In this document: positions 15,153 to 18,100 of the stretch, piece by piece | Position numbering within the stretch: position 1 is the first letter of the stretch | Layout: each line of letters begins with the position of its first letter | Assembly (NCBI GenBank): GCA_008933995.1 | Contig: WARS01000071.1 | Span: 2,315,047-2,379,046 of the forward strand | DNA length: 64,000 nucleotides | Source of the DNA: Datnioides undecimradiatus | Lineage: Eukaryota > Chordata > Actinopteri > Lobotiformes > Datnioididae | Direction of reading: 5' to 3' | The notes under the pieces: model-generated | What the model saw: only the letters and a program-made list of their open reading frames with translations | What the model was told of the DNA's origin: nothing | Database searches by the model: none | Program-made: the position numbers and the translations under genes

Positions 15153-18100
15153 CTGAAACAAAGCACAGAGAAAACTTGTCAGTCGCCTTTTAAAACATGT
15201 CTGATGCAAATGTAGGTTTGACTTTAAACTTTCAATAAGAAACGTTTTCTGTGGCAAAACGTCTAAAGATTCTGGGAAAATGTGTCAGTGCTGTGTTTGT
15301 GTGTCAGCAGCTCCATAAACTGACTCTGGATCAGCTGTAAGACACGTTTCTGTGTGTCAGCAGCTTGATAAACTGACTCTGGATCAGCTGTAAGACACAT
15401 TTCTGTGCTCCTCTTTTCAGCCGCTGCTTGTTTTTAACTCTGTATCTGAAGCAGATGAAGGATTTCAGTCGTCGGACGTCTGGATCTGAAGTTATCAGAG
15501 AAACAAGCTGAGCAAACGTTAGCAGCAGCTCGGCTCGCCGCCCCTCCAGGACGTCCCGTGTGCGGCCGACAGCGTGGGAGAAACAGTGGTTTTTAAGGTG
15601 GAACTGCTTTATTCAGTGTTTCTCTGGGTTTGAATCAGCGGCTCTGTTTGTTTTGGAGAGGAGGAGACCTCTGTGGAGAATTCAGCTCCCAGTAAAAACC
15701 TCCTGAACCATCAACACTGAAGGAATCCCAGCTGACAGGAAGACAACAACTCCCAGCATCCCACGCTGCTGCACCACGTCACATGACTGCAGCTTTAGTT
15801 ATTTGGATTGAAAGACACCTAAAAACACTTTTTCCTGCACCATGACACAAGTTAAACTCCAACATGTGGCCATTCTTTAATAATTATTCCCTAAAAATCA
15901 CAGCTTGCATCTTTGAACAAAGCTTGTTTGAGTCATACAACTTAAAGTTTCTCCCTTAAACTGATTTAAATGTGTCTCCCACTGTGTTTCAGGCTGTTAA
16001 AGCACTGAAACAACAGCAACACACACTTCCCACAAACCATCAGCTTCTCAAATTAGTCGCTTCACCTTGACCCAGAGCCTGCAGCTGAATGAGGGAAGGA
16101 GGGGCCGGAAAGAGTGTGAGGAGAGGGAGAGAGGGGAGGGAGAGAGGGGAGGGAAGGACGAACTGTGAGGAAAGAAGGAAGGAAGGACAGAAGTGAAGGA
16201 GACGCAGAGGAAGTCAGGAGTAATGAAACAACAGACTGACGACGGTGTAAACGCTAAAGAGGAAGTAACGTTAGCCGAGGGTGAGACAGGTGGGGGAGCC
16301 GAGCGCGGTCTCTGCTGCCACCCTGTGGTCGCAGCCTGGTACTGACGCTCGGGTCAGTCCTTCAACCTTCACCTCAGTCAGGAGGGAAACAGCTGCCTCG
16401 CGTTCTTCTTCTACTGCTGTAAATCATGTCCTACGTTTCCCAGAAGGCTACTGTTTATTTACAACAATTCAGATTTTGTTTATTTTAAACGGAAACTTTT
16501 AAATATTAGAGATTCACTTGTTTTCAAACCTGTTTCACAGGTTTTCTCTCGTTTCCCGGATCGGGGAGGTGGTGGAGGGGGTGGGTACGTGTTTACATTT
16601 ACAGAAATGTTTATTATTGAGTGTTGTCCTCGATAAATAAATAAACAAACTGAGGGATCGAGACATGGAGCATCAGTCGACAGCATCTGTTGTTCTTACC
16701 TTCCATCGGTTGCCGCAGCTGTTACACAGCACGAAGGTGGTCATTGGCTCATCAGCACTGCGGGTCTGCACCTGTAACACACACACACACACACACAAAC
16801 ATAATGAAGCTTAACAAAAACTAGATCCAGTGTGTGTGTGTGTGTGTGTGTGTGCGTGTGCGTGCCTACCTGTGTGTACGTGCAGCTCTTTCCGTGACAC
16901 TTGTTGCAGACGAACATGTCGGTCTCCGTCCCTCCGACCTTCGACAGCTGATGCTCCCTGATGGACTCTTTCGTCAGAGCCTCTCTGATCTGTTTCAGCT
17001 CTGCACTCGCCATCTCCTGCACACACACACATACACACGCAGAAACGCACTTATGAATGAGCAGAACGCCGCCTGCAACACACAGCTGTTTAACCGTTAA
17101 AGGGACAGTTCGGGTGTTTTGAAGCCGGGATGCATGAGGAGTGAGTTCAGGTGCAGGACGAGCCGGCAGCCAAATGCATCTCAGACGCCTGAACAGTCAA
17201 TGCCAGTTTAACTTTTTATTTACTTTGCAGTAAGATGGCTCAGTTTGATGGGAACCTGCAGCCACTGCTCCAGACTCCATTGACAGAAAGAGTAATTTTA
17301 CCTCACAGTGCACAGGTGATGCTGGTTCGCTGCCGTGTCAGTTCGGGAGTTTGTTTGTGTCGTTGTTTGACTTCAGCGCGTTAAAGGGTTAGTTTGGATT
17401 CACCAAAGTCACACAGAAACACAAACAAACAAACGAAACAAGGCAGCGTTGGAGCAGCTACTGCCCGCGCGCTGCAAGCTAAAATTACTGTTTTTGTCAA
17501 TGGAGTCTGGTGGAGACGGCAGTTTAATGTCAGAAGCGGCTGCTCCTGGTGGAGTCCTCCACCCAACAACCTCAGACAAACCCCAACTTCAAAAAGCCAA
17601 GAAGAACCCAAAACACGTTCAGGCCGACCTCTGCGCTCATGCTGGCGATGCGCTGCGGCGAGATGTTTCCACACAGGACGTTGCGCCGCAGGTCCGGGTT
17701 CTTCTGGTCCTTGAGGTTGGAGATGCGGCTCCGGAGGCGGGTTTTATATTTCATATCTGTCGACTTAAATTCCTGAAAGATCTGTGGGCGACGGGGAGCG
17801 GTCAAGGACACAGTAACATCACGAGATACGCAAACAGGAGTGTGTGTGTGTGTGTGTGTGTGTTTCCTTTTCACTGTTCAAAGCCTGGATCCGCGTTGAC
17901 GCTGTGGAAGGATATTCTCTTCGATTTGCGCAGCGAGGTGCTCACAGTCGACTCCAATGGTCATGTAGTCATCTGAAACACACACACACACACGTTTAAC
18001 TTTCTGCACGGTAGTAGCTTCCACATTAACAATAAACACACATGTTGCCAGTGAATCAATTAATATTTCATAATAATAGTAATAAATAAAACCTGATTCC

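What the first reader, a model, noticed from the sequence alone, without database searches (positions are those of the whole stretch)
17784..17915. Minor-class AT-AC (U12) intron inside the tcea2 central domain
Seen: after QIEE there is no GT; the sequence is ATATCCTTCC, and 132 nt later GTCCTTGAC stands 18 nt before CCCAC. AC-ending splicing restores frame and the correct residue count, while the AG two bases downstream (CCCACAG) would break it. Known: U12 introns use ATATCCTT and TTCCTTRAC. Automated GT-AG gene models would probably mis-build this exon. A (CA)n repeat fills the middle of this short intron.
Basis: partly seen in the sequence, partly recalled or inferred. Interest (0 to 1): 0.75.

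Follow-up and report, generated by a model that had tools for sequence, protein, structure and literature searches.

The report
Rare-class intron in fish tcea2
A fish gene for a transcription elongation factor is interrupted by a rare but well-understood class of intron (AT-AC, removed by the minor spliceosome); it looks genuine and old, and automatic gene predictors sometimes get it wrong, but it is not a new kind of thing.

Summary
On the minus strand, exons 17972-17916 and 17783-17629 of a fish tcea2 gene are separated by 132 nt that begin ATATCCTT and end CCCAC, with the branch-site match TCCTTGAC near the end (branch A 18 nt from the last base). AT-AC removal gives QIEE-K-IFQEF, gap-free against human TCEA1 and TCEA2; retention, or this donor with the AG two bases on, meets a stop. 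Of 120 listed fish homologues, 113 keep the junction length; 81 of these have Q or E, as the N|AG split codon predicts, and 9 of 9 transcript-like ones keep the spliced length. Ten of 120 models are mis-built here, seven with a translated donor ([DHY]IL). The same scar (QIEEDIL) is in 17 of 120 listed TCEA1 models, and 21 of 22 read-throughs there imply an intron ending in C. So the intron is probably older than the TCEA1/TCEA2 split. No transcript of this fish was available. Ordinary, conserved member of a known class.

The parts
17784..17915 (-). U12-type AT-AC intron, 132 nt, phase 1
17908..17915 (-). 5' splice site ATATCCTT
   Evidence: 7 of 7 U12 positions +2 to +8, 2 of 6 U2 positions; only copy in the window
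17801..17809 (-). branch site GTCCTTGAC (1 mismatch to TTCCTTRAC), branch A at 17802
17784..17788 (-). 3' splice site CCCAC, branch A to last base 18 nt
17840..17863 (-). (CA)12 repeat inside the intron
16700..19396 (-). span of the eight tcea2 coding exons assembled here (19396-19334, 18965-18860, 18721-18634, 18505-18372, 17972-17916, 17783-17629, 17016-16870, 16771-16700); first coding exon and last codons not located

Best explanation
The 132 nt at 17915-17784 (minus) are a U12-type intron of the AT-AC subtype in tcea2, which encodes TFIIS. By the established mechanism, U11 and then U6atac pair with ATATCCTT, U12 pairs with TCCTTGAC leaving the A at 17802 as branch point, and the exons are joined at the first AC downstream, giving GAG-A|AG-ATC (E-K-I) in phase 1. 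Shown here: the sequence signals, their spacing, the open frame, the residue-for-residue fit to homologous proteins, the spliced length in transcript-like homologues, and translated-donor scars in gene models of relatives. Inferred: that the minor spliceosome removes it in this fish, and that the intron was present before TCEA1 and TCEA2 separated.
For: Donor 7 of 7; donor, branch site and AC together met once in 60 simulations of 128 kb and seen once; best of 625 splice pairs; gap-free fit to human TCEA1 and TCEA2; junction residue Q or E in 81 of 113 same-length rows; 9 of 9 lgn-only homologues on contigs of 1,050-2,848 bases carry the spliced length; [DHY]IL in 7 of 120 tcea2 rows and QIEEDIL in 17 of 120 TCEA1 rows, with C implied as last intron base in 21 of 22 read-throughs. 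Branch-to-end range 10-20 nt (PMC8199999, passage).
Against: The branch distance of 18 nt is above the optimum of 11-13 (PMC3584512, passage). The stretch before the 3' end is 75% pyrimidine, level with the highest of the gene's seven U2 introns measured, so the usual lack of a pyrimidine tract is not seen. A 2-nt shifted AT-AG intron fits nearly as well in this species (340 against 341). K at the junction occurs in 0 of the 113 same-length homologues. One of 22 TCEA1 read-throughs (P0224) does not fit. No transcript of this species.
Confidence: 0.95

Rival explanations
1. The same 132 nt shifted by 2: an AT-AG intron at 17913-17782, with donor ATCCTTCC and acceptor CACAG, giving QIEE-N-IFQEF.
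For: In frame, protein score 340 against 341. Three same-length homologues read D-IF or H-IF (P0007, P0051, P0068), which an N|AT split would give.
Against: An N|AT split can code only D, H, N or Y; 107 of 113 same-length rows have other residues, including 9 of 9 transcript-like ones. The shifted donor fits neither consensus (seen directly). AT-AG termini appear to be disfavoured in U12 introns (PMC3584512, passage).
Confidence: 0.03
2. A U2-type AT-AC intron removed by the major spliceosome.
For: Such introns exist (title of Wu and Krainer 1997 in the reference list of PMC3584512). The tract before the 3' end is pyrimidine-rich.
Against: Those have ATAAG-like donors (recalled). Here the donor matches 7 of 7 U12 and 2 of 6 U2 positions, and a U12 branch site stands in range.
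Confidence: 0.01
3. Not an intron with AT-AC ends: a GT-AG or GC-AG splice nearby, or retained sequence.
For: Some public models of relatives are built that way (10 of 120 tcea2 rows disturbed).
Against: Best GC-AG pair scores 301 and best GT-AG pair 284, against 341; retention meets a stop after 12 residues.
Confidence: 0.01

Closest known systems
U12-type (minor-class) introns, AT-AC subtype
   Same: ATATCCTT donor, TCCTTRAC branch site, branch-to-end distance within 10-20 nt, AC end. AT-AC makes up 22% of U12 introns in zebrafish and 12% in two pufferfish (PMC7367187, section 17).
   Different: Branch distance above the 11-13 nt optimum; pyrimidine-rich before the 3' end.
The homologous intron of TCEA1
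   Same: Same codon and phase; models of mammals, birds and one frog carry QIEEDIL after the same QIEE (17 of 120), and 21 of 22 read-throughs imply a final C.
   Different: Seen only through translated models, not as DNA; the next exon begins CN there (Ala) instead of AG.
Xenopus TFIIS genes with unusual RNA-processing signals (Plant, Hair and Morgan 1996)
   Same: Recalled as reporting AT-AC introns in TFIIS genes; not seen and not held.
   Different: Other species; position not compared.

Membership tests
U12-type AT-AC intron | 5' splice site consensus (A/G)TATCCTT | tested here: met
   ATATCCTT, 7 of 7 positions +2 to +8; consensus in PMC8199999 passage
U12-type AT-AC intron | branch site TCCTTRAC near the 3' end | tested here: met
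   TCCTTGAC exact, TTCCTTRAC with 1 mismatch
U12-type AT-AC intron | branch-to-end distance 10-20 nt, optimum 11-13 | tested here: met
   18 nt: in range, above the optimum
U12-type AT-AC intron | AT and AC termini that restore the reading frame | tested here: met
   best of 625 pairs, 341; the shifted AT-AG pair scores 340
U12-type AT-AC intron | no distinct pyrimidine tract before the 3' end (usual trait) | tested here: not met
   15 of 20 pyrimidines, partly the branch site itself; the review names 5' splice site and branch site as the defining features (PMC3584512, passage)
U12-type AT-AC intron | removed by U11/U12/U4atac/U6atac snRNPs | not testable with these tools
   needs RNA from cells with the minor spliceosome blocked
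U2-type AT-AC intron | ATAAG-like donor (recalled) | tested here: not met
   donor reads ATATCCTT

The most novel reading that the evidence does not exclude
The intron has kept AT-AC ends in both TCEA1 and TCEA2 since before they split because its slow removal by the scarce minor spliceosome sets how much TFIIS is made. A retained intron stops translation 12 residues after QIEE, losing most of the central domain and the whole zinc ribbon, so Pol II elongation would be tied to minor-spliceosome activity.
Probability: 0.08. Interest if true: 0.5.

Novelty: new member of a known kind. Interest (0 to 1): 0.22.

Why it matters
Mainly as annotation hygiene and as a clear example of an old minor intron. 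The junction is disturbed in 10 of 120 listed fish tcea2 rows and 29 of 120 listed TCEA1 rows, so protein databases carry false insertions such as QIEEDIL in TFIIS. The shared codon and phase in two paralogues suggest that the intron predates their split, likely the early vertebrate genome doublings (dating recalled, not tested).

Tried and rejected
GT-AG, GC-AG, AT-AG and AT-AC pairs across both exons were enumerated (625 pairs, 126 open and in frame); only the 2-nt AT-AG shift comes close. Another U12 intron was sought in the window: GTATCCTT occurs once without mismatch (38425, minus), with no branch site of at most 1 mismatch within 3 kb downstream; donors with 1 mismatch were listed but not pursued. 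Two junctions could not serve as controls because they lie in or beside the variable linker: LL/DGS (101 of 120 rows differ in length) and EK/SKK (77 of 120). The pyrimidine-tract test went against the usual U12 trait. An own-genome search failed because the genome search did not complete. Nine paper searches for U12, minor or AT-AC introns with TCEA1, TCEA2, TCEA3 or TFIIS listed no paper whose title or abstract concerns this intron; eight papers were opened for passages with these terms and none of the passages concerned it; the other listed papers were not opened. In PMC4506483 the search counted TCEA3 twice but the main text held it 0 times, which I could not resolve. Supplementary gene lists could not be read, so no claim is made that the intron is unpublished. 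One search's motif search left out rows lacking TDMKY; the counts used come from the alignments. A weak Pfam hit (DBD_Tnp_Mut, 20 bits against a cut-off of 25) was dismissed.

Full report
What was claimed.

The observation. It is exact. The exon 17972-17916 ends CAA ATC GAA GAG A; then come 132 nt starting ATATCCTTCC and ending CCCAC; then AG ATC TTT CAG GAA TTT AAG (from 17783). GTCCTTGAC lies at 17809-17801, with its A at 17802, 18 nt from the last intron base. Joining the AT-AC ends gives [18 protein letters not shown]. With the same donor, the AG two bases on gives a stop after 5 residues (QIEE-NLSGI-stop), and retention a stop after 12 ([20 protein letters not shown]).

Is it chance? ATATCCTT occurs once on the two strands; a Markov-1 model expects 0.93 per 128 kb, so the motif alone proves nothing. 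With a branch site (at most 1 mismatch) within 400 nt and an AC in range, one case arose in 60 simulations (0.017 per 128 kb), and the one real case sits exactly at the edge of a coding exon. The donor matches the U12 consensus at 7 of 7 positions; the other seven donors of the assembled gene match at 1 to 4 of 7.

The gene. Eight exons assembled by eye give a 274-residue protein with Med26, TFIIS_M and Zn_ribbon_TFIIS domains above cut-off. At the junction it aligns without a gap to human TCEA1 (5iy6, E 1.7e-110) and TCEA2 (2lw4). The nearest listed proteins are tcea2 of percomorph fish, first Siniperca chuatsi at 95%. The window also holds an RGS domain closest to RGS17 and then GAIP/RGS19 and an HMG box closest to SOX18; PRPF6, SOX18, TCEA2, RGS19 and OPRL1 are listed together for one dog region (PMC7774950, passage). 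The first coding exon and the last codons were not located.

Could another splice do? Of 625 donor-acceptor pairs over the two exons, 126 are open and in frame; the AT-AC pair scores best (341) against Siniperca. The best GC-AG scores 301 and the best GT-AG 284.

Relatives decide between the two. An N|AT split can code only D, H, N or Y; N|AG codes K, Q or E. Of the 120 fish homologues listed (best 120 of 2930), 113 have the query's length at the junction: Q 44, E 37, R 7, L 7, C 6, A 4, H 3, D 2, F 2, Y 1, and K 0. So 107 of 113 do not fit the shift. Of the six that could, three carry a translated donor (P0047, P0089, P0110) and three (P0007, P0051, P0068) remain unexplained. Nine rows come only from the source 'lgn', with longest contigs of 1,050-2,848 bases, and carry proteins of 302-312 residues. 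I take these for transcript assemblies (inference; the tool does not say so), since the coding exons span 2.7 kb in this window. All nine have the spliced length, with residues E, E, R, F, F, E, A, L, A.

Mis-built models as evidence. Ten of 120 rows are disturbed at this junction: P0034, P0047, P0056, P0063, P0076, P0078, P0089, P0100, P0103 and P0110. Seven of them read [DHY]IL after QIEE, QIED or NIEE, which is what N|ATATCCTT gives when translated. In three species a mis-built and a well-built row can be compared: Scophthalmus maximus H-IL (P0034) and Q-IF (P0008), Solea senegalensis H-IL (P0063) and Q-IF (P0037), Siphateles boraxobius Y-IL (P0110) and C-IY (P0106). Each pair shares the first codon base, as a phase-1 intron demands. 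In Echeneis naucrates (P0103, P0051) both rows have H, which does not help. As a control, the junctions QTD/DDY, SAE/EMAS and YTQ/VQT are changed in length in 0, 0 and 0 of 120 rows, ETLQ/STR in 4, and the U12 junction in 7 by the same measure. LL/DGS (101 of 120) and EK/SKK (77 of 120) differ too, but they lie in or beside the variable linker and cannot be judged.

The paralogue. With human TCEA1 as query (best 120 of 5928 listed), 29 of 120 rows are disturbed at the same codon and 91 are not. Seventeen read QIEEDIL (by their names: 7 mammals, 9 birds, 1 frog), consistent with G|ATATCCTT, though a translation cannot fix every base. Twenty-two read through the 3' end; 21 have P directly before the I/V-Y/F-Q that starts the next exon. 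The well-built rows have A there in 82 of 91 (C 6, S 3). A is G|CN, so P is C|CN: the intron ends in C, as AT-AC needs and GT-AG does not allow. The exception is P0224 (T). Five disturbed rows fit neither pattern (P0140, P0160, P0209, P0225, P0239). At four other positions 4, 0, 1 and 7 of 120 rows are changed in length, against 28 at this one (that TCEA1 has junctions at those positions is assumed). Rows include isoforms and close relatives, so they are not independent. The same codon, phase, donor and final base in both genes point to one intron older than their split. TCEA3 and invertebrates were not examined.

How it works. By the established mechanism of U12 introns: the 5' splice site and branch site are the defining signals (PMC3584512, passage), and the branch-to-end distance is 10-20 nt with an optimum of 11-13 (PMC8199999, passage). 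Here it is 18, acceptable but long. The lack of a pyrimidine tract, a usual trait, is not seen (75%). AT-AC makes up 22% of U12 introns in zebrafish, 12% in two pufferfish and 26% in human (PMC7367187, section 17). The pairing of U11, U6atac and U12 with these sites is established knowledge of the class, not shown for this gene.

Literature. Nine searches listed no paper whose title or abstract concerns this intron. The library holds only open-licence papers, and supplementary lists could not be opened. One review names TCEA2 among genes with aberrant splicing in SF3B1-mutant patients without saying which intron (PMC7469106, passage). I recall a 1996 paper on Xenopus TFIIS genes with unusual RNA-processing signals (Plant, Hair and Morgan, NAR), which I could not see. 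I expect TCEA1 and TCEA2 to be in U12 intron databases already (not checked).

Verdict. Real, correctly read, and ordinary in kind: a conserved minor-class intron. What this adds is its apparent age (shared by TCEA1 and TCEA2) and a count of how often public models get it wrong.

Noticed in passing
17628-17623 (minus): The U2 donor of the next exon reads GAG/GTCGGC, matching the U2 consensus at only 3 of 6 positions; the weakest GT donor of the eight-exon model, next to the U12 intron.
   Followed up: no
TCEA1 models P0127, P0129, P0144, P0146, P0148, P0149, P0151 and others: Public TCEA1 proteins of mammals, birds and a frog carry what looks like translated intron after QIEE (17 of 120 rows); these look like annotation errors, not isoforms.
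   Followed up: partly
about 14000-14250: A short tandem array gives repeated PLVSGCRAGNKPR in one frame and PGGGAYFLPCSQT in another; looks like a minisatellite.
   Followed up: no
38425 (minus): A perfect GTATCCTT, the GT form of the U12 donor, with no branch site of at most 1 mismatch within 3 kb; probably chance.
   Followed up: partly
4659-7360 (+) and 63197-63826 (+): RGS17/RGS19-like and SOX18-like coding stretches flank tcea2, matching the gene list of one dog region.
   Followed up: yes
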